Origin: Callipepla californica brunnescens
Lineage: Eukaryota; Chordata; Aves; Galliformes; Odontophoridae
Direction: 5' to 3'
Length of the DNA stretch: 64,000 nt
Assembly: GCA_023055505.1 (NCBI GenBank)
Contig: JALIRH010000049.1
Coordinates: 3,720,001-3,784,000, forward strand
This document shows, one piece after another, positions 19,021 through 46,247 of the stretch. Under the pieces are notes generated by a model. That model did not search any database. It had not been told where the DNA came from and was given only the letters and a program-made list of their open reading frames with translations. The position numbers and the translations under genes are program-made. Position 1 is the first letter of the stretch. Each line of letters starts with the position of its first letter.

Positions 19021-19453
19021 TGTCACGGTGTTATCCGTGACAGTAACCCAAGGGAGAACCGAGAAGGGTAAAAGAAAGGGAGAGGGAAAAAAACTGCCGC
19101 GCGGCCGCCTAACCAGAGCCTCACGCTTCAGGGGGAGGGGAAAACAGAGGGGATTAAGGGTCTGTAAAGATAAATACAACGGCACGATGTGAGAAGGAAT
19201 GGTAACTTTACTAAAACCAATAAAATTGAACAATTGAGAGATAGAGACAAACTTTCCAAACCAGAAAACTGGGAGCTTACTTTACACGTGCTGAACTCCT
19301 CAGAGCCGCCCAGAGAGCGCGCCACCAAAAAGCGCGGGCCTGGTGTCTGGTGCGGAGCTCCGCCCCTCCCCTGCTCCCACAGCATTAACTCCTTAACGGC
19401 CTGCATGATGTTCTGATGTGGAATACCGGCATCAAAACCACAAAACCACAACA
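19021..19453 (-). repeat. ERV1 3' LTR
   Basis: 433 bp that begins TG and ends CA on the plus strand. It matches 22158-22605 with roughly 5% differences by eye plus an indel in an A-rich run. The 3' end in LTR direction contains an inverted repeat, TGTCACGG and CCGTGACA separated by 6 nt (19021-19042). Its outer edge abuts the satellite. Confidence 0.92.
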
Positions 19454-20224: not shown

Positions 20225-22144
20225 TCAGCAGCTTGATCTCTGCTGTAATTCTCTCACACGTGCTCGTAGTGCAGGGGAGGCTTTTTTATGCCACTTCTTC
20301 ATGTCCTCTCCATTTTCTCGTAAGAAGCTCCACATGGACACACGCGACATGAAGTTACTGCTGTCATCTGCTCGAGCAGAGAGGCGGTTGCCTTTGATGG
20401 CTGAGACTTTTATCAGTTTGATCAGTTTCTCCATCAGATTCTTTGGATCATCCCCGTCTTCATCCGGTGTTTCAGACACTGACACAGGTCCCTCCCGGTT
20501 CATCAGTAAGGACAATTCCTCCAGTATCATTTTCAGTATCTTCTTTATGTCACTGACTTCTCCTGCTACCGATGATACAGTTGCAATGGAAACGTGTGAT
20601 GGTGGAAGTTGTTGTTCAAAGTTTTGAAGTGTAGTAACCACTTCATGAAATGGGAGTCTTCTGTTTCGGCCCTCGAGTATATTGAATGTTGCTACCAGTG
20701 TACTTGCGTACCTTTCTAGTGCTGTTTTTGAGAGCTTCCGATATACATCAGCTTTACACCATGCTTTCTCAGGATCGCGGTCCTGGTGTGGATTGTTAGG
20801 GACGAAAGTAGGATCGTACAGCATCTCTACTACAGCCATTTCTCTCAAAAATTGGACGCCCTTCTCCACAGTATTCCATCTTTCCACCTTAGGCTCCAGA
20901 TCGTCTTTGTAAGGAAATCTCTCCTTTACAGCTACTAGTACTCGTTCCCAGAGGGTAGCAACTCCACTCAAACATCTACTAATCCCTCTGTCGATAGCTG
21001 GGTCTCGAGCAATGCTTCCCAGTTGGCGGGCTTCGTTGCCATCTAGGGACACGCTGCTGGCACCGTTGTCCCAACACCGCAGCAACCAGGTGACAATAGG
21101 TTCATCTGAGCGCCGTTCAAACTCCTTTCTTGAACCCTGGATTTCAGTCATCCTTAGGGGCCGACGAATAGTAGTAATGGTGATTTCTTCAGTATCACTG
21201 TCCTCTCCATGTCTCACACTTTTCTTAGTGGCCTTTCTAGGTGGTGGTGGTGGTGGTGGTGCTGAGGAGGGCCCCTCACCTGGATCTTCCTCTTCTTTCT
21301 CATCTCTGTCGTCTCCACGTTTCTCACCTTCCTTAGTGGCCTTTTTACGTAGTGGTGGTGGTGGTGGTGGTATTGGTGCTGAAGAGGGCCCCTCACCTGG
21401 ATCTTCCTTTTTTTTCTCTGCTTCTTCTTCTTTCCGTTCTAGCCGAGAGGACACAAGTTTCCATTTCTGGCCTTCCACAGGGGCAACCGACACGGATGCT
21501 GGTGCTTCCTGTGACTGGTCAGGTTTAACCTCAAGGTTTTAATTTTTGTTCTGAACCTCGGTTTGGAAACCATTTCTCTCAAGAATATCAATTATAGCTC
21601 GATAAGCACAAGCCAAGCCCCAAACAATCCGTTCCTTCTCAGATCTGCCTGAGTCACATGACTCCTGACCTAAACACTCACTGAATGTCTCAGGATCCCA
21701 CAGGTGCTCAAGATCAAAATCACATTGCACCGGGGGTCCCCACGCTTCTAATTTCTTCCCTAACTTTTCCCACCTTCCCTGCCATTCAACACTCTCTGGT
21801 TCTGAGGAAGGCTTCCGCCACTGGATGTAAAATACCATTGCACAGAGTACATTCAGGAAAACAGATAACACAGTTGCCAGGCTGACACCTTGAAGATAGC
21901 TAAAAACCTGAAAAGAGTACCTGGAAACCAATCCAAATGCCGTATAATCTGTCATATTAGCCAGGCTGTTTAGGCGGGAGGGGGGTAACCCCATCAGCAC
22001 ACTAAAGCAGCTGAATGCAGATATGACTCCCATGCTGAACATGAGGAGCTTAAAAAGACGCCAACATGCTCTAAGGTACATGAAAACACTTAGTCCACTC
22101 AGCACCAGTTTTACAGTGGAGTACAAAAACTGCATTGCCCGCAT
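20225..22144 (-). pseudogene. ERV1 gag with hydrophobic N-terminal region
   Basis: One reading frame interrupted by a single in-frame TAA at 21539-21541. The N-terminal part holds two hydrophobic stretches, roughly 22130-21990 and 21900-21830, with an N-M-T glycosylation sequon in the loop between them. The following region is charged, with proline runs (IPPPPPPL, APPPPPPPRK) and the signature LLRCWDNGA that is also seen in ERV2 gag. No CCHC zinc knuckle is visible. The likely start is one of two Met codons at 22144 or 22135. Both lie next to the LTR, so the usual untranslated leader is absent, perhaps deleted. The frame stops at 20225 just before the integrase remnant. Confidence 0.8.
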
Positions 22145-22153
22145 TCTCCACCA
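22136..22153 (-). promoter_or_regulatory. Possible ERV1 primer binding site (tRNA-Ala-like)
   Basis: Minus-strand TGGTGGAGAATGCGGGCA begins 4 nt inside the 5' LTR. The first nine bases fit the complement of a tRNA-Ala 3' end (ATCTCCACCA), with an extra A after them. It overlaps a candidate gag start codon. It may therefore be gag sequence brought next to the LTR by a leader deletion, and the match could be chance. Confidence 0.4.
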
Positions 22154-22157
22154 ATAA

Positions 22158-22605
22158 TGTGTCACGGTGTTATCCGTGACAGTAACCCAAGGGGGAACCG
22201 AGAAGGGTAAAAGAAAGGGAGAGGGAAAAAAAAAAAACAACAACAACTGCCGCGCGGCCGCCTCAGCAGAGCTTCGCGCTCCAGGGGGAGGGGAAACAGA
22301 GGGGATTGAGGGTCTGTAAAGAAAAACACAACGGCACGATCTGAGAAGGAACGGTAACTTTACTAAAACCAATAAAATTGAACAATTGAGAGAGAGAGAC
22401 AAAATTTCCAAACCAGAAAACTGGGAGCTTACGTTACACGTGCTGAACTCCTCACAGCCGCCCGGAGAGCGCGCCACCAAAAAGCGCGGGCCTGGTGTCT
22501 GGTGCGGAGCTCCGCCCCTCCCCTGCTCCCACAGCATTAACTCCTTAACGGCCTGCATGATGTTCTGATGTGGAATACCGGCATCAAAACCACAAAACCA
22601 CAACA
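22158..22605 (-). repeat. ERV1 5' LTR
   Basis: 448 bp, TG...CA, homologous to 19021-19453. It is longer mainly because of an expanded A/CAA run near 22229-22247. It shares the distant core (cacgatctgagaaggaa followed by actttactaaa) with the ERV2 LTR family, so the two proviruses belong to related lineages. Its right edge meets non-satellite sequence. Confidence 0.92.
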
Positions 22606-23008
22606 GTGTCCTGCTGCCGTCTGTGGCCATTGGACCTGGGAAGCAGCAGCCCGTTTTCAAACACAGATGAGAGGACAGGCCCACGGGGCAGTGAGGGGCA
22701 GCCCCCCGTGAACACTGAGGCTGCTGCTCCGTGGTGCAGCTGGGCTCTTGGCCCCTGAACTGCTCCTGCATACATGAGTTGCTCTCCCCGTCTCAGTGAA
22801 GATGGGAAAACAAAGGAATGGAGACAAATGAATTTCTGCTGGCTTCTTTATTGTATTTATCAACAGAGAGCCTTGATCTATAGGTACATGAGTTGAGTGT
22901 GCCAAAACATGAACGATATGTAGCAGGCCAAGAAGAAAACTTCTTATTAAATCAAAGTCGTGGCAGTGGAAACAATAATGGAGGCAAATATAAACAAGGG
23001 ATTGTGAA
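22606..23008. other. Flank between ERV1 and OR pseudogene
   Basis: No coding region is recognised. The sequence is the 3' flank of the olfactory receptor and the junction with the ERV1 5' LTR. Short open frames here have no recognisable motifs. Confidence 0.6.
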
Positions 23009-23979
23009 TTACCATGGGGATCCTGTTAGGCTGATGCGCATTTTTTGGGCGCAGAAGTACGTATTGCTCACTGCAACCTTGAGCTCCTGGTTCCTCAGGC
23101 TGTAGATGAGAGGATTCACTGCTGGAGGCACCACTGAGTACAGAAATGACACCAGGAGGTCCAGGAATGGAGAAGAGATAGAAGGATGCTTCAGGTAGGC
23201 AAACGTGGCAGTGCAGACAAAGAGGGGGACCACGGCCAGGTGAGGGAGGCACGTGGAGAAGGCTCTGTGCCGGCCGAGCACAGAGGGCATCCTCAGCACT
23301 GCCCTGAAGATCTGCACGTAGGACAGCACAATGAAAACAAAGCACCCAAGATACAAAGAGACACTAACCACAATAAGCCAAACTTTCCTGAGGTATGGCT
23401 GCGAGCAGGAGAGCTTTAACATTTGGGGGATTTCACCAAAGAATTGATTCAAAACATCGCCTTGGCAGAGTGGCAGTGAAAATGTATTGGCAGCGTGCAG
23501 CAGGGAATAGAAAAACCCAGTGCCCCAGGCAGCTGCTGCCACGGTGACACAAGCTCTGCTGCCCAGGAGGGTCCCATAGCGCAGGGGATTGCAGATGGCA
23601 ACAAAGTGGTCATAGGACTTGACTGCGAGAAGGGAATACTCTGCTGAGACGAAGAAAGTAGTAGAAAGAAAGAAAGAAAGAAGACCTGTGCAGCACATCC
23701 CAAGTAGGAGATGGCCCTGGTGTCCCAGAGGGCATTGGCCGCGGCTTTGGAGAGAGTGGTGGAGATGCAGCCCAGGTCGAGGAGGGCGGGGTTGAGGACA
23801 AAGAGGTACATGGGAGTGTGCAGGCCGTGGTCGCAGGCTGCAGCTGTGCTGCTGAGGCCGTTGCCCAGGAGGGCAGCCAGGGAGATGCCCAGGAAGAGCC
23901 AGAAGTGCAGGAGCTGCAGCTGCCGCGTGTCTGCCAACGCCAGCAGGAGGAACTCGCTGATGGAGCTGCTGTTGGGCAT
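23009..23979 (-). pseudogene. Olfactory receptor (OR14-like) pseudogene, frameshifted
   Basis: A single-exon class A GPCR odorant receptor on the minus strand. The start is the Met of MPNSSSISEF, which opens with the usual N-glycosylation site. Seen in order: TM1 with GNG, HTPMY at the intracellular loop 1/TM2 junction, LDLGCIS in TM3, then in a second frame SAEYSLLAV, the DRY region, KAFSTC-like RAFSTCLPHL at TM6 and NPLIYSLRNQE in TM7. The two frames overlap near 23650-23690, where the minus strand has a TTTC tetranucleotide run; slippage there explains the frameshift. The DRY motif reads DHF and HTPMYFF reads HTPMYLF, further signs of decay. The total length of about 323 codons is normal. 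OR14-like (avian gamma-c) assignment is from motif recall. Confidence 0.9.
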
Positions 23980-26900
23980 TTGGTACTGCTGGGTATCAGC
24001 ACCTGTGGGCATGAGGACCTGGTCAAGGAGTACAAAAGTCTGTGACAGGTCTTGCAATGGGGGAAATGCTTCTTGAGGTCAGTGATGTAAGCTACACTTC
24101 ATGAGGTTGTGTCTGCCACGAAGGCCTCTGCCTTCCTTCTCGGAAGGAAACAGCCATGTCCCTGTGAGGAACGTGTTGGTGCTGTGGTCACAGGTTTTCT
24201 TTTCAGAGTTGGTCAGACGAGATCACTTCTACAGCAGAAGTACTTGTAGGCATCTGTGCAACTGACACAAGAAAGACGTGCGTTGCAAATCAAAGTTGTA
24301 GGGATGCTTTTTCTCCTCCGTGGTCTCATCCTACTCATGATGCCCAAAGGGTGCTCGGTGAAGTCAGAAATCCTGAGCACTTCTGCTGCACTCAGTGTGA
24401 ATGGCTGTGACTGAGACCTGAGAGGCAAAGGGATTCACTGCTGCTTCCTGCAGGATAAGGGGAGCTCGCTGGGCTTCTTTCCAGTTGCTGTGAAACAGCA
24501 AAGTTTGGAGATGGAAGGAGAATACACTCCCGTGTTACCTTTCAAAGAAGCCAGACCCTGCTGAGAGAAGAGGAAATGACTGCGCATCACACAACGCACA
24601 CCCTTTCTCAAGGGACGTGAGCAAGATCTCATCACTGCCCTTCTTACAAAGGACACCTAACATTCATTTCACCAACCCCACAGCATTTCCATGCACACAG
24701 CTCTCTCTGCTTCTTCCCTGGACTTTGTTCTTCAGGCTATGGGAAAGATTTGCATCCTGAAGGTCAGCTCACAGCTCTGAAGGACCTCAGGGAGATATTT
24801 CCTAACAATGGCATCTCACTGAGGGAAAGCCAACTCCTTCCCAGCCTCACAGGCTGCATTGCACACAGCTCCAGGCATTCACTCTCAGCCACTGTGCTTT
24901 GCAGAGTGCGATGGACACGTGCCTGGGGAGATGCTCCTCTGCTCTGCAGGAGTTTGGCACGGGAATCATTCCTACAAGCTGTAGTTAAGTAGGATAAGAC
25001 CTCCTCGACCAGTTACCAAGTGCAAGGAGCTACGCCAGAATTTTACGAAGTCTTGGACAGTTTGGAAAGCGTGAGAGGTTTTAAGAGTTGCTTCTCAGCT
25101 TAAATGAGCAAGGCCCAACCAGAGTAAGGCTCAGCTCTGTACTTTTTAAGTGACCAAGGACGAGGTCAGGCGTCTGTCTGGTCTGTGATGACACGCTACT
25201 GATGGAGAACACAAGTGATAGCCTGTAGGACTAAGTGACTAACACTCACCCTAAGTCTGTGCCTAAATTAAGCAGGAGTTTTCTAACAATATTTTCAACA
25301 TGTTGAATGCGGACTGCAGTCCAGTGGAGGACTTTCTTTTCCTCTGTCCCAGATTCTGCAATCCGGCACAAGTAGTACAATACGCGCTTGTGTCGGACTC
25401 AAAAGCTCAACTAGAACAGCCCCTCCCTCTTCCCCAGAGGTAAAGAGGGTCTGAGTTACAGAGCAAAGTGATGCCGGCCAGCCAGCTTGTCTGCTTGTAT
25501 TCCAAGATCAGCAGTTAAACCACTTTCACCCAAAGGAACATTAATGGCAAGCATTAATGGCAACATCTCATTCCTGCAAAACTGCTGGTGGTGTCCAATC
25601 TCCAAATAATCTGATACTGACAGCAGGTCCTTGTGTTGTCCTCTGCTGCACAAAAATTCCTTGAAGAAGGACCTGTTTCCCAGATAAAGCAGCTTAAGGC
25701 TCATCACTACTAGGAAATTCATCTACTCTCTCAGAAGCATTTTCTTCTAACACACAAAAAAATCCACCTCTTGATGTACTTCCACTTCAAGCAGCGAAAT
25801 GATAGCTGAAAAATATTAAAATTTGAGTGCAAGTGCTGCCTTGATAGTCCTCGGACAGTGTTTCTTCCCAGCCCTTAATCTTTTCTGTGGGCTGGTCAAC
25901 CTCCCCCAGGGTATCCCCTGCAGTATCACACTGGGGTAGCTGTAGCTGTTGCAGCAATGTCCTGAGAAAGTCTGGTTAAAATGCCAACGAGGTGGAGTTG
26001 AACCTCATGTTCTGAAGCTGAGAAAACAAAAACAACGCATTGGAAGAGCTACAGAATTGTATTTGTCCTTACAAGTTTCTTTGATCAGAAACCCAGAGGC
26101 CTGTCAAGTCACAACAGAAAAACAAATGCTGTGAACAGCGGCAGCGGGAAGAACTCGGGCAGCAGGAATGCTAGGCTCCGGATATCTAATGCTTTGATCA
26201 TTCCACTTCACCTTTCAGAAGTGGAAAGGAATTCTACGTCCTGGTATATTTGTTACAGTAAAAATAAATTGCTGTTTGACCCCCTGCCATCCCTAGGTCA
26301 GCTTACTTTGTAGTAAAGGCTGCTGTAGGCCAGAAGACTGGCTCTAACCCTTGTGTGATTACACGAGGCCTCAAGGAAGCAAATCAAGAGAAAAATAAAT
26401 AAATAAAAGCAGTATAATGTTTTCTACCACTCACTCTCTTTCTAATCCTCAGCATCTCCGGAGAGAGCTTAGCCTTGTGTTCAAAGCCAGGCATCACTGT
26501 CCCCTCCCTCAGGTGCTTCTGTTTCTCCTCAATTTGCACTCATCCATCTCACCAAGCATCCAAGTCCTCCGTCAGAGAAATGCTGCCGTGTCCCGGAATG
26601 GCTCTTTGTGAATTCCTTCCCCTTAAGTCATCTGGGGAAACACGGAGCACGTCTGTTACAAAGCCCCTCCAGTCAGAGGGCCTGCCACTCCTCCTTCTGC
26701 TGCGGAGCAGTCTGCCCAAGGCTCTTCTCCAGTAACATTCCTTCTCTGAGAACGGAAAATTTCAGGCACACAAATTTCAAGTTTGAGAGAAATAAAAGCA
26801 GAGGAAACAAACAGCGCCTGATGCACTATTTCTGAATCCCTCGTCCCCAGTATAACTTCTTGCTAGAACACTCAGTGCAAAGATTGGTTTCCAAGCAAGT

Positions 26901-39839: not shown

Positions 39840-40415
39840 TGTCAACGTTTTACCGGGCTGGATCGGCACGGCTCCGCTACGACCGGTGCGGGGGACCCAC
39901 GGACCCACACTCCAGGAAAGGGGAAAGGAAAAAAGGAAAAAGGGAAAAGGGAGATGGGCCTAGAAACAAAACAGCGGCAACGATCTGAGGAGGAATGCTA
40001 ATTTACTAAATAAGATATCAGAAAGTAAAATAACACAATATAATACAATATAATTGGAATTGAGGCTAATGAATCAAATAAAATGAGCAAGAGAGAGTGT
40101 CCGATAAACCGAAGGCCTTACGCTAACGCTGAAGGCGATACGGCAGCGAGCACCCACTGCTGCGTCGATCCCGAAGGAAAGAGAGTGTCCCGTGACCGCT
40201 GAGGGTTTTTATCTGTTCCCTCTGAGCGGAAAACACGTAAAAATACAGAGCATCGCAAAGTCCTCTGGGGAATGTAGAGCTTCTTCTCTTCTGAGGCAGG
40301 TATACCTGGAATTATCAATGATCTATGGAGCTGGAGTATTAGCTCTTTAACTCTTAATGCAATACATGATGTTATGATGTGGAATACTAGTACCAAAAAT
40401 CATAAAACCATGACA
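39840..40415 (-). repeat. ERV2 3' LTR
   Basis: 576 bp, TG...CA on the plus strand, homologous to 45674-46247 with roughly twenty differences by eye. Five LTRs of this family occur in the window. Confidence 0.95.
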
Positions 40416-40527: not shown

Positions 40528-43500
40528 TTACTGACTGCACTCCCCCAACATCAAATTCCCTTGTGGTACACACTCAACATCCCCATTCTTCTGCATCACC
40601 CACCAAGCGGACCCAGGTCCCTGAGCAAAGACAGTTCCACGGAGAGGTTTGCCCTTCCCAGAAGCTGGAAGGACCCGTACCGCTTTCCCCAACATGTTCT
40701 TTACATGTACTACAGGGACCTTATTTCCCTCTACAGTAGGTAGGGAGTTGGATTGGGCAGGACCATCACGATTGATGGATCCTCGAGTGTTGACCAACCA
40801 GCTGGCTTCTGCCAAATGCTTCTCCCAGTGCTTAAACGTTCTGCTACCCATTGCTTAGAACATGGTTTTTAGCAACCCATTGTATGTTTCAATCTTACCG
40901 GAAGCTGGTGCGTGATAGGGGATATGATAAATCCACTCAATGCCATGATCTTTGGCCCAATTACTTACAAGAGAATTTTTGAAATGAGTCCCATTATCTG
41001 ACTCAATTCTTTCTGGAGTGCCATGTCGCCACAGGACTTGCTTCTCGAGACCTAGAATGGTGTTTCGGGCGGTAGCATGGGGTACTGCATATGTTTCAAG
41101 CCACCCAGTAGTTGCTTCCACCATGGTGAGCACATAATGTTTACCATTGCGAGATCGTGGCAAGGTGATATAATCAACCTGCCACGCCTCCCCATATTTA
41201 TACTTTTGCCATCGTCCTTCCCCCCAGAGAGGTTTCATCCTCTTGGCTTGTTTAATTGTGGCACATGTATCACAGTCATGGATAACCTGTGCAATAGCAT
41301 CCATAGTTAAGTCCACCCCTCGGTCTCTAGCCCACTTATATGTTGCATCTCTTCCTTGATGGCCCGAGGTCTCATGGGCCCATCGAGCTAAAAATAATTC
41401 ACTTTTGTGTTGCCAATCCAAGTCTACTTGAGCCATCTTAACTTTAGCAGCTCGATCTACCTGATGGTTATTCTGTTGTTCTTCAGTTGCCCGGCTCTTA
41501 GGAACATGAGCATCTACATGGCGCACCTTTACAACCATATTCTTTATTCGGGCAGCAATATTTTTCCACAGTTCAGCGGCCCAAATAGGTTTACCCCTCC
41601 GTTGCCAGCCATTTTGTTCCCACTGCTGTAACCACCCCCATAAGGCATTTGCCACCATCCATGAGTCAGTGTAAAGATAAAGCACTGGCCACCTCTCACG
41701 TTCAGCAATATCTAAGGCCAGTTGGACAGCCTTTACCTCTGCAAATTGGCTTGACTCTCCTTTTCCTTCAGTGGCCTCTGCAACTTGTCGCGTGGGGCTC
41801 CACACTGCAGATTTCCATCTGCGGTGCTTTCCCACAATGCGACACGATCCATCTGTGAACAGGGCGTATCTCTTTTCATTGTCTGGTAGTTCATTGTATG
41901 GCGGGGCCTCTTTAGCACGTGATACCTCCTCTGCGGGTGTTGTTCCAAACTTTTTACCTTCAGGCCAGTCCATGATCACTTCTAGGATTCCTGGATGACT
42001 GAGGTTCCCCATCCGAGCTCGCTGTGTAATCAGTGCAATCCACTTACTCCAAGTGGCATCAGTAGCATGATGGGTGGAGGGAACCTTTCCTTTGAACATC
42101 CAATTCAGCACTGGCAGTCGAGGTGCCAGAAGGAGCTGCGCTTCAGTACCGATTACTTCGGAAGCAGCTCGAACCCCCTCGTACGCGGCCAAGATCTCCT
42201 TCTCAGTTGGAGCGTAGCGCTCCTCAGACCCCCTGTATGCTCGACTCCAGAAACCAAGGGGTCGGCCTCGGGTCTCTCCAGAAGCTCTTTGCCACAAACT
42301 CCAAGTGGGACCTTCCTTTCCAGCAGCAGTGTAGAGGATGTTCTTTACATCCTGTCCCATCCGCACTGGCCCCAGGGCCACGGCACGGGCTATCTCCTGC
42401 TTAATTTCCTCAAAAGCCTGCTGCTGCTCAGGGCCCCATACAAAATCATTCTTCTTCCGCGTCACCCGAAAGAGAGGGCTCACAATGAGGCTGTAGTTTG
42501 GAACATGCATTCTCCAAAAGCCCACTACACCCAGAAAAGCTTGGGTCTCTGTCTTACTAGTGGGTGGAGACATAGCACTAATTTTGTCAATCACATCTGT
42601 TGGGATGTGACGACGTCCATCTTGCCACTTTATGCCTAGGAATTGAATTTCCTGTGCAGGCCCTTTTACTTTGCTTCGTTTAATAGCGAAGCCAGCTCGC
42701 AGGAGGATCTGGATTATTCTCTCTCCTTTCTCAAAAACTTCCCCTGCTGTATTGCCCCACACAATGATGTCATCAATGTATTGTAAGTGCTCAGGAGCAC
42801 CGCCCTGTTCCAATGCAGTTTGGATCAACCCATGGCAAATGGTTGGGCTGTGCTTCCACCCCTGGGGCAAACGGTTCCAGGTGTACTGAACGCCTCTCCA
42901 GGTGAAGGCAAACTGTGGCCTGCATTCTGTGGCCAAGGGAATTGAAAAGAAGGCGTTAGCAATGTCAGTCGTGGCATACCACTTGGCTGCTTTTGACTCC
43001 AGTTCATACTGGAGTTGAAGCATGTCCGGCACAGAAGCACTCAGTGGAGGTGTGACTTCATTCAGGCCACGGTAATCTACCGTCAGCCTCCATTCTCCAC
43101 TGGCTTTACGCACTGGCCATATGGGGCTGTTAAACAGGGAGTGAGTTTTGCTGATCACTCCCTGGCTCTCTAGCTGACGAATCTGGTTATGAATGGGGAG
43201 CAAGGAATCCCTGTTGGTGCGGTACTGCCGTCTGTGCACCGTTTTTGTAGCAATTGGTACCTGTTGCTCCTCCACTTGTAGTAACCCTACAACAGACAGA
43301 TCTTCTGACAGGCCAGGCAAAGCAGACAGCTGCTTAATATTATCTGCATCCACAGCAGCTATTCCGAAAGCCCATCGATACCCTTTGGGATCCTTAAAAT
43401 ATCCCCTTTTGAGGTAATCAATACCAAGTATGCATGGGGCCCCCTGTCCGGTCACTATAGGATGCTTCTGCCAGTCTTTACCCGTGAGGCTTATTTCTGC

Positions 43501-43713
43501 CTCCAGCACAGACAATTCCTGAAAGCCCCCAGTCACTCCAGAGAGATGAATCAATTCTGCCCCTTTATAACTTGAAGGCATTAGAGTACATTGTGCACCA
43601 GTATCCACCAGTGCCTCATATTTCTGTGGGTTTGATGTGCCAGGCCACCGAATCCACACAGTCCAATACACTCTATTATCCCTCTCCCTCCTCTGGCTGA
43701 GGGCAGGGCCCCT
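40528..43713 (-). pseudogene. ERV2 pol: protease, RT, RNase H, integrase
   Basis: One frame from the codon after the gag UAG to 40528, broken by one in-frame TAA at 40855-40857. Counting from the first Met (43671): protease VDTGAQC with catalytic D23; RT with LTVDYRGLN, D236, LPQGW and YIDD (298-301); RNase H acidic residues D607, E645, D669, D739; integrase HHCC H766, H771, C800, C803 and catalytic D833, D892, E928 with the normal 35-residue spacing. After the nonsense codon the frame continues through the integrase C-terminal domain (GKPLRGTVF, WWVMQKNGD). All catalytic residues needed before the stop are visible, so inactivation may be fairly recent. No dUTPase segment is seen. Confidence 0.93.
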
Positions 43714-43716
43714 CTA
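43696..43716 (-). promoter_or_regulatory. Gag stop with possible readthrough hairpin
   Basis: Gag ends in TAG (43716-43714) and pol follows in the same frame with no other stop. Directly at the stop the RNA can form a 5-bp hairpin (GAGGG with CCCUC, loop GCCCUG). A downstream AGGG could pair with the loop as a pseudoknot. This is the arrangement used for stop-codon readthrough in gammaretroviruses. Function here is inferred. Confidence 0.5.
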
Positions 43717-45456
43717 TTCATTACCTGTAGTGACAGGAACAACTTCGCTGGTAGTTGCTCTGTGTTGTAATTCTCTCACCCGTGCTCGCAGTGCAGGGGT
43801 GGGTTTTTGATGCCATTCCTTCATATCTTCTCCATTTGCACGTAAGTAACTCCACAAAGCCGCGCGCGACATGAAGTTAGTGCTGTCATTTGCTCGAGCA
43901 GGACGGCGTCTGCTACTGATAGCTACAATTGATTCAACCCTATCAATCAGTTGGGATAATTTTCCCAGTATATCTTCCATTTGTCCTTCGAACTTTGATA
44001 TGGCTGAAATGGACGCGTATGGCGGCGGAAATTTTTGTTTGAAGTTTTGAAGTGTAAGAATTAGTTCAAAAACTGGGGGTTTTCTGTCTTGGTCCTCATA
44101 TCTGTTGAACGTTGTCACTAGTGTACCGGCGTACCTTTCTGGTGCTGACTTTGAAAGCTTCTGACATATTTCGGGTGTACTCCTTACTTTCTCCGGATCA
44201 TGGTCCCGATCGTCAGGATCAAAGGTGGGATCATACAGCATTTCCGCCACAGCTGTTTCTCTCAAATACTGGATGCCTTCCTCAATAGTTTTCCACCTTT
44301 TCACTTTAGGTGCCAGGTCACTCTTGTAGGGATATCTTTCCCTCACAGCTACTAGCATTTGTTGCCAGAGGCTGGCGATTCCATCCATATACCTGCTGAT
44401 TCCTCTGTCGACAGCCGGATCTCGGGCAATGTTTCCTAGTTGGCGAGCTTCGTTACTATCAAGGGACACACTGTTGGCCCCATTGTCCCAACACCGAAGC
44501 AACCAAGTGACAATACTCTCATCCGGACGTCGAACAAACTCCTTTCTTGAGCCTTGGTTCTCAGACATTTTCATGGGCCGACGAAACGTCGTAACTTTAA
44601 CTTTCTCTTCACCTTCATCATCACTTTCTTCTCCATGTCTCTCACTTTTCTTTGTTGCCTTTCTCGATGGTGGGGGGGTTGTGGCCACCCCCTCACCTAT
44701 ATCTTCCTCTTCTTTCGGCACCTCTTCTTTGCGTTCTAGGCGCGAGGACACACGTTTCCATTTCTTGCCTTCCACAGGGGCAACTGACTTTGATACTGGT
44801 GCTTCCTTTGGCTGGTCAGGCGTGACTGGGAGGTTTTCCTCTTTGGTTTGGGCCTCAGTTTGGACACTCTCTCCCTTCACAATAGTATATAAACCTCGGT
44901 AAGCATAAGCCAAGCCCCAAATAAGCTGTTCCACCTCAGATCTTTCTGAGCCGCAACACCCTTTACTCAGATACAGGCCTAGCTCCTCAGGATCCCGCAA
45001 TTGTTTGGGAGAAAAATCCCATGACACCGGGTGTCCCCATGCTTCTAATTTCTTTCCTAAAACTCTCCATTCTCCATGTCATTCAACATTCTCTGTTTCT
45101 GGGAGAAGCTTCCTGCACATGATGTAAAGTGCTACTACATGAAAGAGGACTAATATCCCAATTATTAACACCATCCCTAAGCTGTGATCTTGAAAATTCA
45201 TAAAAAACTGAGAGGGGAACCCGGATACCCATTCAAACATCACATGGTTCGTTAATATGCTATCGTTTGTTCCATTAGCTGGGGTGCCCTGGTATCTGGC
45301 AGGTGCCTCTATCATTGCTTTTAATTTATCATATAGGGACCAGAACCAATGGAACAGAATGGCAAACCTAACCAAGTTCCAGTACGTTTTGAGCATTAAG
45401 AGGGAAAAAAAAATGAAATGCAGCCCCTTTAAGAGCAGTTCAAAATGAGAGAACAT
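43714..45456 (-). pseudogene. ERV2 gag with two-TM glycosylated N-terminal region
   Basis: One frame from the Met at 45456 to the UAG, interrupted by a single TGA at 45079-45081 where ERV1 has a Trp codon. Residues 7-40 are strongly hydrophobic. An NGT sequon lies at 61-63 and a second hydrophobic helix at 92-114, followed by basic CRK. The gag body follows: a charged, proline-containing region, LLRCWDNGA, and a helical end with EDILGKLSQLIDRV. There is no CCHC zinc knuckle. The start at 45456 is chosen because the homologous ERV1 extension begins at the same place; a shorter product could start at 45027, after the nonsense codon. Confidence 0.85.
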
Positions 45457-45648: not shown

Positions 45649-45666
45649 GCCGCAAGTTGGGCGCCA
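45649..45666 (-). promoter_or_regulatory. ERV2 primer binding site (tRNA-Lys type)
   Basis: Minus-strand TGGCGCCCAACTTGCGGC, 7 nt inside the 5' LTR. It matches 16 of 18 bases of the site complementary to tRNA-Lys1,2 as I recall it. Confidence 0.8.
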
Positions 45667-45673
45667 AAAAAAA

Positions 45674-46247
45674 TGTCAACGATTCACCGGGCTGGATCGG
45701 CCCGGCTCCGCGACGACAGGTGCGGGGGACCCACGGACCCACACCGCAGGAAAAGGGAAAGAAAAAGAGAAAAAGGGAAAAGGGAGATGGGCCTAGAAAC
45801 AAAACAGCGGCAACGATCTGAGGAGGAATGCTAATTTACTAAATAAGATATCAGAAAGTAAAATAACACAATATAATACAATATAATTGGAATTGAGGCT
45901 AATGAATCAAATAAAATGAGCATGAGAGAGTGTCCAAAAAACCGAAGGCCTTACGCAAACGCTGAAGGCGATACGGCAGCGAGCACCCACTGCTGCGTCC
46001 TTCCCGAAGGAAAGAGAGCATCCCGTGACCGCTGAGGGTTTTTATCTGTTCCCTCTGAGCGGAAAACACGTAAAAATACAAAGCACTGTAAAGTACACTG
46101 GGTAATGAAGTGCTTCTTCTCTTCTGAGACAGGTATACCTGGAATTATCAATGATCTATGGAGCTGGAGTATTAGCTCTTTAACTCTTAATGCAATACAT
46201 GATGTTATGATGTGGAATACTAGTACAGAAATCCTAAAACAATGACA
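45674..46247 (-). repeat. ERV2 5' LTR
   Basis: 574 bp, TG...CA on the plus strand, paired with 39840-40415. Outer flank GAATC equals the flank of the 3' LTR, so both LTRs belong to one insertion. Confidence 0.95.

What the first reader, a model, noticed from the sequence alone, without database searches (positions are those of the whole stretch)
43714..45456. Gag with a two-helix, probably glycosylated N-terminal membrane hairpin, conserved in two proviruses without env
Both ERV2 (45456-45082) and ERV1 (about 22144-21830) begin gag with a hydrophobic stretch, a loop carrying an N-glycosylation sequon (NGT in ERV2, NMT in ERV1), a second hydrophobic helix, a basic stop-transfer end (CRK, QWRK), and then the gag body in the same frame. 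The residues differ a lot but the layout is the same, which suggests selection on topology. Typical Gag is cytosolic and membrane-targeted by myristate. An integral-membrane Gag in an env-less element would be an unusual way to reach membranes, loosely like glyco-Gag of gammaretroviruses.
Basis: partly seen in the sequence, partly recalled or inferred. Interest (0 to 1): 0.75.

Follow-up and report, generated by a model that had tools for sequence, protein, structure and literature searches.

The report
Membrane-anchored Gag in bird retroelements
Envelope-less retrovirus relatives in bird genomes appear to carry their capsid protein on a built-in, probably glycosylated membrane anchor, which suggests how such elements could reach membranes without an envelope or a lipid tag.

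Summary
Both proviruses start gag with a hydrophobic region of 119-125 codons (hydrophobic, loop with N-glycosylation sequon, hydrophobic, basic end) in frame with the gag body. The window copies are damaged: ERV2 has a stop directly after the region, ERV1 a later one. In the same genome 35 of 44 copies picked from the best matches are open through the region and at least 300 codons of body. Of 26 non-redundant avian Gags that reach this far, 24 have an early hydrophobic segment, 23 one just before the body, 17 a loop sequon (about 8 expected). Residues change, but apolar positions mostly stay apolar (8% become polar, against 23% in the loop). All 20 copies checked lack room for env. Limits: 11 of 25 show three or more segments, not two; AlphaFold predicts one long helix for the first part; some lineages lost the sequon; one group of copies shares a stop in the region; residue-level dN/dS is not clearly below 1. 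It is not glyco-Gag. Best reading: an integral-membrane Gag of a class III (ERV-L/spuma-like) env-less lineage that anchors assembly at ER or secretory membranes. Nine literature searches listed no description of it.

The parts
45674..46247 (-). ERV2 5' LTR (edges read by eye)
   Evidence: LTR pair, slightly trimmed, differs at 5.7% of aligned sites
45649..45666 (-). ERV2 primer binding site, resembling that of tRNA-Lys1,2 (recalled, not tested)
   Evidence: sequence
45082..45456 (-). ERV2 gag N-terminal membrane region, 125 aa: hydrophobic stretch about aa 7-42, loop with sequons at aa 61 and 64, hydrophobic helix about aa 93-114, basic end
   Evidence: hydropathy
45079..45081 (-). in-frame stop codon of this copy between membrane region and gag body; none of the other 43 copies stops there
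43714..45078 (-). ERV2 gag body, same frame; contains a capsid-like domain (by its relative L005)
   Evidence: model of relative L005, residues 285-478
40855..43671 (-). ERV2 pol (protease-like, RT, RNase H, integrase), same frame as gag
39840..40415 (-). ERV2 3' LTR shortly after the end of pol; no room for env
22160..22605 (-). ERV1 5' LTR (edges read by eye)
22136..22153 (-). ERV1 primer binding site, resembling that of tRNA-Ala (recalled); first gag ATG (22144) lies inside it
21788..22144 (-). ERV1 gag N-terminal membrane region, 119 codons: three hydrophobic segments, sequon NMT, end QWRK
21539..21787 (-). ERV1 start of gag body in the same open frame, ending at an in-frame stop (21541-21539)
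20228..21538 (-). ERV1 rest of gag body, same frame
19021..19453 (-). ERV1 3' LTR (edges read by eye)
   Evidence: LTR pair differs at 3.8%

Best explanation
This is the N-terminal domain of the Gag of an avian, env-less, class III (ERV-L/spuma-like) LTR element. Gag is made from an AUG at the start of the region. The region acts as an uncleaved signal anchor, two or three membrane segments with a luminal loop that is often N-glycosylated, and leaves the capsid-bearing body on the cytosolic side. Gag is thus inserted co-translationally into the ER. Capsids assemble on, and perhaps bud into, ER or secretory-pathway membranes without myristate and without Env. Shown: the frame, its spread over bird orders, hydrophobic conservation, absence of env in this family, a capsid-like body. 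Inferred: the start codon used, insertion, topology, glycosylation, site of assembly.
For: 35 of 44 same-genome copies are open through the region and at least 300 codons of body, 33 to codon 560 or beyond. Of 26 non-redundant avian relatives that reach this far and are not chimeric gene models, 24 have an early segment, 23 a segment just before the body, 17 a loop sequon (8.4 expected from shuffled loops) and 14 all three (three chimeras subtracted). By an insertion scale that I recalled and weighted myself, 24 of 25 have at least two insertable segments, while 25 gag bodies (11,412 aa) have 3 in all. Apolar positions that changed became polar in 20 of 262 cases in the segments, 34 of 150 in the loop and 79 of 186 in the body start. 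No stop inside either window region although about 10 would be expected at the body's synonymous distance of 0.68 (13-16 expected stops per unit distance). No representative starts with MG (0 of 25, two of which do not begin at a Met). No env in 20 of 20 copies. Precedents: MuERV-L, also env-less, makes particles that accumulate in the ER (PMC5930517, passage); foamy Gag lacks its own membrane-targeting signal, and adding one allows Env-independent egress (PMC3705266, passages); Ty1 Gag is made through SRP and the ER (PMC3945221, abstract).
Against: AlphaFold draws the first stretch as one helix of about 49-56 residues with no turn (shallow alignments, no membrane). dN/dS of the region is 0.67 between ERV1 and ERV2 and 0.79 with an interval spanning 1 among recent copies; shared and singleton variants in the region both give 0.65; within-family variants show no significant bias against polar changes (4 of 24, 6.0 expected). 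22 of the 150 scored matches have a stop inside the region; of 8 of these fetched, 7 share one at residue 76 of the region while 5 of the 6 fetched whole have a body with no further stop before residue 581, so a group of copies, on contigs C60, C69 and C119, multiplied or was duplicated without an intact region. 13 of 25 representatives have a Met within 19 residues of the body start, so a second Gag without the region, started downstream, is not excluded. The sequon is missing in 9 of 26. No topology, glycosylation or localisation data exist. The test reuses one reference and depends on the alignment.
Confidence: 0.57

Rival explanations
1. The region is a membrane-active transfer module that serves cell-to-cell passage of capsids in place of Env, like the sORF2/FAST-like proteins of Drosophila MDG1 elements, but fused to Gag.
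For: Env-less elements in Drosophila use a short transmembrane protein with a basic patch in its tail to infect the germline (PMC11952523; abstract and two sections). Here too: small loop, transmembrane segment, basic flank, env-less element.
Against: sORF2/FAST proteins are separate proteins with one transmembrane domain, four of six MDG1 ones with a myristoylation motif; here the region usually has two or more segments, is fused to Gag, and 0 of 25 start with MG. No fusion data.
Confidence: 0.12
2. The region is an accessory host-interaction domain that evolves fast because of conflict with the host, as glyco-Gag serves infectivity; membrane anchoring is only the means. It may sit on only part of the Gag made, the rest starting downstream.
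For: Fast evolution: 30% identity between ERV1 and ERV2 against 64% for most of gag, dN/dS 0.67 against 0.31. 13 of 25 representatives have a Met within 19 residues of the body start, and a group of copies with a stop in the region keeps its body largely open.
Against: In 9 of 25 representatives the next Met lies 87 or more residues into the body, so there every capsid-bearing Gag from the first AUGs would carry at least part of the region.
Confidence: 0.13
3. The region is a cleaved leader or signal sequence (by signal peptidase or the element's protease) that delivers Gag to membranes and is then removed, so mature Gag is soluble.
For: An N-terminal hydrophobic helix resembles a signal sequence; retroviral Gags are processed (recalled).
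Against: A hydrophobic segment lies directly before the body in 23 of 26 representatives, mostly with basic residues after it, which cleavage after the first helix would not explain.
Confidence: 0.1
4. Leader or decayed DNA that happens to be open and hydrophobic, with no protein function.
For: Shuffled residues of the region pass the two-segment test in 1898 of 4600 cases; dN/dS is not clearly below 1; copies with a shared stop in the region exist.
Against: Open and in frame in relatives of at least seven bird orders; no stops where about 10 are expected; apolar residues preserved.
Confidence: 0.04

Closest known systems
ERV-L / MuERV-L (class III, env-less)
   Same: Env-less, no zinc knuckle here as in ERV3/ERV4 and spumaviruses (PMC4299795, passages); MuERV-L particles accumulate in the ER (PMC5930517, passage)
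   Different: Whether mammalian ERV-L Gag has such a membrane region was not tested here
Avian TguERVL2 elements (PMC6523648, passages)
   Same: Avian ERVL family with intact GAG, AP, RT and RH domains and no intact envelope; perhaps relatives (inferred from family and host, not compared)
   Different: That paper reports a 'disrupted envelope glycoprotein C' similarity in gag; the word transmembrane does not occur in its main text
Foamy virus Gag
   Same: Related Pol
   Different: Foamy Gag has no membrane-targeting signal and needs Env (PMC3705266, passages); here Gag appears to bring its own anchor
Gammaretroviral glyco-Gag
   Same: Gag extended at the N-terminus by a membrane segment and glycosylated
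   Different: CUG start, extra form beside normal Gag, type II with the unique N-terminus in the cytosol (PMC3423011, passages)
sORF2/FAST-like proteins of MDG1 elements
   Same: Small transmembrane module in an env-less element
   Different: Separate protein with one transmembrane domain, shown to work in cell-to-cell transfer
Ty1 Gag
   Same: LTR-element Gag routed through the ER
   Different: Ty1 Gag is translocated and thought to return to the cytosol (PMC3945221, abstract); no membrane anchor in the abstract seen
Gagr, a domesticated gag gene of Drosophila
   Same: Gag-derived protein with a putative transmembrane domain said to anchor it in the ER membrane (PMC8956099, passages)
   Different: A host gene in a stress pathway, not a working element's Gag; no sequon-bearing multi-segment region in the passages seen

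Membership tests
Class III ERV (ERV-L/spuma-like) | Pol nearest to spumavirus Pol | tested here: met
   Best solved-structure match is Pr125Pol (7o24), which I take to be foamy virus Pol, 184 bits over residues 140-740; the p80 RT/RNase H entries, which I take to be gammaretroviral, reach 159. One sequence search, no tree.
Class III ERV (ERV-L/spuma-like) | Gag without CCHC zinc knuckle | tested here: met
   0 of 25 representatives and 0 of 44 same-genome copies
ERV-L | No env | tested here: met
   Integrase piece to LTR 439-449 nt in 20 of 20 copies
ERV-L | dUTPase, present in mammalian ERV-L (recalled) | tested here: not met
   No dUTPase among the Pfam matches of ERV2's 938-aa pol ORF nor of the 108-aa frame after it; so I call it ERV-L-like, not ERV-L proper
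Retroviral Gag | Capsid fold | tested here: inconclusive
Glyco-Gag | Upstream non-AUG start beside a normal AUG-started Gag | tested here: not met
   The region itself begins at an AUG in ERV1, ERV2 and most representatives. A second, downstream AUG is not excluded in 13 of 25
Glyco-Gag | Type II topology, Gag outside the cytosol | not testable with these tools
   The charge pattern suggests a cytosolic body; experiment needed
Orthoretroviral myristoylated Gag | MG N-terminus | tested here: not met
   0 of 25 representatives, two of which do not begin at a Met
FAST/sORF2-like fusogen | Separate short protein with one transmembrane domain and a basic patch in its tail | tested here: not met
   Fused to Gag in 35 of 44 copies; 24 of 25 have two or more segments
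FAST/sORF2-like fusogen | Cell-cell fusion activity | not testable with these tools
   no experiment

The most novel reading that the evidence does not exclude
An avian-wide retroelement lineage replaced both Env and lipid-tagged matrix by fusing a multi-span, glycosylated membrane module to Gag, and uses it to pass capsids through membranes, inside the ER system or from cell to cell, without any envelope gene.
Probability: 0.15. Interest if true: 0.88.

Novelty: new variant of a known kind. Interest (0 to 1): 0.65.

Why it matters
How env-less ERV-L-type elements engage membranes is open: MuERV-L particles sit in the ER, and foamy Gag cannot reach membranes alone. A Gag with its own conserved anchor gives a simple, testable answer for birds. 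The Gag also has no credible Pfam match, and copies are named ubiquitin hydrolase or enolase in bird gene sets, so naming the family would clean these up.

Tried and rejected
IMG/VR scans for relatives found none. Pfam and NCBIfam on 42 aligned relatives gave only scattered weak matches that I judge to be coiled-coil or low-complexity; PDB by sequence gave nothing credible for Gag. A glyco-Gag filing was rejected (membership test). An env remnant at the 3' end was rejected. The claim 'dN/dS below 1 in the region' was tested three ways and not established. Polar-change bias among recent copies was uninformative. Shuffles showed that layout alone is weak evidence. In one search the more distant pairs show very high capsid-part distances, which I suspect come from frameshifted tails (not checked), so only all-pair values are quoted.

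Rows dropped before counts: six gene models that I judged chimeric (P0161, P0119, P0124, P0108, P0137, P0029) before clustering, and P0187, P0206, P0190 after reading their upstream sequence; with these three kept the tallies are 24, 23, 18 and 14 of 29. P0209, partly chimeric, is kept in the 26 and left out of the 25. The expected 8.4 is one search's 9.4 less the three dropped rows. In one search loci L003, L004, L014, L052 were dropped as duplicates or short pieces. The 44 copies are the window's own ERV2 locus (L001), the best others returned, and ones I picked from its list of the 150 best-scoring of 2117 candidates; I picked none of the 22 rows with a stop inside the region for the 44, so open copies are over-represented. 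The 85 of 150 open frames of 500 aa or more counted include 12 rows for which one search also reports a stop inside; 73 have none. The lower estimate for the main explanation (0.57, was 0.60 in my draft) follows from the shared stop and the downstream Mets.

Full report
What is there. On the minus strand the window holds two related env-less proviruses amid 18-bp satellite arrays. ERV2 runs from a 5' LTR (about 46247-45674) through gag and pol to a 3' LTR (about 40415-39840); ERV1 (about 22605-19021) has lost most of pol. The window belongs to a 1.085-Gb assembly, C49:3720001-3784000; that the host is a bird is inferred from the avian gag relatives.

The region. ERV2 gag starts at ATG 45456 with 125 aa of strongly hydrophobic sequence, sequons at 61 and 64, a second helix and a CRK end; ERV1 has the counterpart at 22144 with NMT and QWRK. 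The gag body follows in the same frame. Each window gag has one in-frame stop, ERV2 immediately after the region, ERV1 82 codons into the body. Elsewhere in the genome the region is joined to the body without a stop: of the 150 scored matches among 2117 candidates, 128 have no stop within the region, and 73 of these lie in open frames of 500 aa or more. In 44 copies examined, 35 are open through at least 300 codons of body and one, ERV2 itself, stops at the region's end. All 44 keep at least one loop sequon. Against this, 22 of the 150 matches have a stop inside the region; of 8 such copies fetched, 7 share it at residue 76, and in 5 of the 6 held whole no further stop follows before residue 581. 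Whether this group spread by transposition or by duplication of chromosome segments was not resolved.

Relatives. Three protein searches, with a natural open gag, a profile of 14 relatives and a Colius relative, found 90, 425 and 174 proteins, the best 120 of the last two listed. Where a source names the organism of a listed protein it is a bird (landfowl, waterfowl, raptors, cranes, storks and ibis, owls, mousebirds, parrots, shorebirds, passerines), save one 2-kb contig labelled Klebsiella, which I take for contamination. 137 of 221 proteins cover the start of the gag body and 59, one genome copy included, have 90 or more residues before it. After removal of chimeric gene models and clustering at 70% identity, 26 remain: 24 with an early hydrophobic segment, 23 with one just before the body, 17 with a loop sequon, 14 with all three. 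The named ones with the region come from landfowl, waterfowl, raptors, cranes, ibis, mousebirds and passerines; for owls, storks and shorebirds the listed proteins show the body only or a partial or chimeric front, and the parrot row shows one segment. In an alignment of 14, the sequon's threonine column is at least 90% conserved and the asparagine stands in 9 of 14 rows; L005's own sequons fall a few columns earlier. The Colius/crane/manakin group, one waterfowl group, a guineafowl and a grouse row keep segments but not the sequon.

Selection. Between ERV1 and ERV2 the region has dN 0.64, dS 0.95; the next 80 codons 0.36 and 0.56; a further 357 codons 0.21 and 0.68. So the region evolves fast. 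Yet it is open in both, where about ten stops would be expected at that distance. Across eight landfowl-type relatives compared with L005, 262 changed apolar positions in the segments became polar or charged in 20 cases, against 34 of 150 in the loop and 79 of 186 at the body start. The mutational expectation was about 25%. Recent copies say little: region 0.79 (0.44-1.59), capsid part 0.52 (0.40-0.69); variants shared by three or more copies give 0.65 in the region and 0.44 in the capsid part.

Topology. With an approximate insertion scale 24 of 25 representatives have two or more insertable segments and 11 have three or more. Turns between the first two segments are often basic (for example RGNWAR, RACWRLFK, CERWIK), though not always (SAVTGD), and basic residues mostly follow the last segment. 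By the positive-inside rule this puts the loop with the sequon in the lumen and the body in the cytosol for two or three spans. AlphaFold disagrees on the turn, showing one helix at 2-50 or 2-57 and another at 91-117 or 95-115.

The rest. Gag body residues about 285-478 resemble retroviral capsids (middling Z; Foldseek alone found nothing significant). Pol is nearest to foamy Pol among solved structures, Gag lacks a zinc knuckle and an MG start, and env is absent in 20 of 20 copies. I therefore place it with class III, ERV-L-like elements; the dUTPase of mammalian ERV-L (recalled) was not seen.

Mechanism and novelty. The likeliest function is an ER-inserted anchor that stands in for myristate and Env in membrane assembly. 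Foamy Gag, which lacks a targeting signal, buds without Env once one is added (PMC3705266, passages), and MuERV-L particles accumulate in the ER (PMC5930517, passage). A shorter second Gag started downstream remains possible in lineages with a Met near the body start (13 of 25). Nine literature searches listed no paper that, by title, abstract or the passages I looked at, describes a membrane-spanning Gag in these elements; the nearest is the domesticated Drosophila gene Gagr (PMC8956099, passages). The library lacks most subscription journals, so this is weak evidence of novelty.

Noticed in passing
window 22153-22136 (minus): The first gag ATG of ERV1 lies inside its primer binding site (tRNA-Ala-like, recalled), so gag has almost no leader. 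Relatives P0011 (Excalfactoria) and P0157 (Colius) also begin M-R-A, as such a site would encode.
   Followed up: partly
window 43716-43671 and loci: Gag and pol are in one frame separated by a stop: TAG in 31 of 33 copies whose gag is open to codon 560 or beyond, and 31 of 33 stay open for 30 codons or to the end of the held piece; suggests stop-codon readthrough.
   Followed up: partly
L069, L070, L071, L072, L074, L075, L076: Seven copies on C60, C69 and C119 share a stop at residue 76 of the membrane region; duplicated segments or a spreading sublineage.
   Followed up: partly
P0108 (Buteo), P0119 (Tyto), P0124 (Accipiter): Gene models named USP4 join host-type exons to gag just after the membrane region at nearly the same residue in three species; could be an old insertion used as an exon or a shared model artefact.
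   Followed up: no
P0052, P0176, P0212: AMFR gene models of two parrots and an owl contain gag sequence; crane gag copies are named ubiquitin hydrolase or enolase in databases.
   Followed up: no
P0031, P0043, P0098: Gags of several birds carry long Pro/Thr/Ala repeats in the linker; the herpesvirus glycoprotein C similarity reported for TguERVL2 gag (PMC6523648) may be this low-complexity stretch.
   Followed up: no
window 45497: ERV2 leader has a 7-codon upstream ORF ahead of the gag ATG.
   Followed up: no
G000 C59, C60, C69, C71: Many matches cluster on a few contigs, some with identical scores (e.g. three places on C71), which may mean segmental duplication of proviruses.
   Followed up: no
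window 22947-24057 (minus): Olfactory-receptor-like gene fragments lie just upstream of ERV1 (recognised by eye).
   Followed up: no
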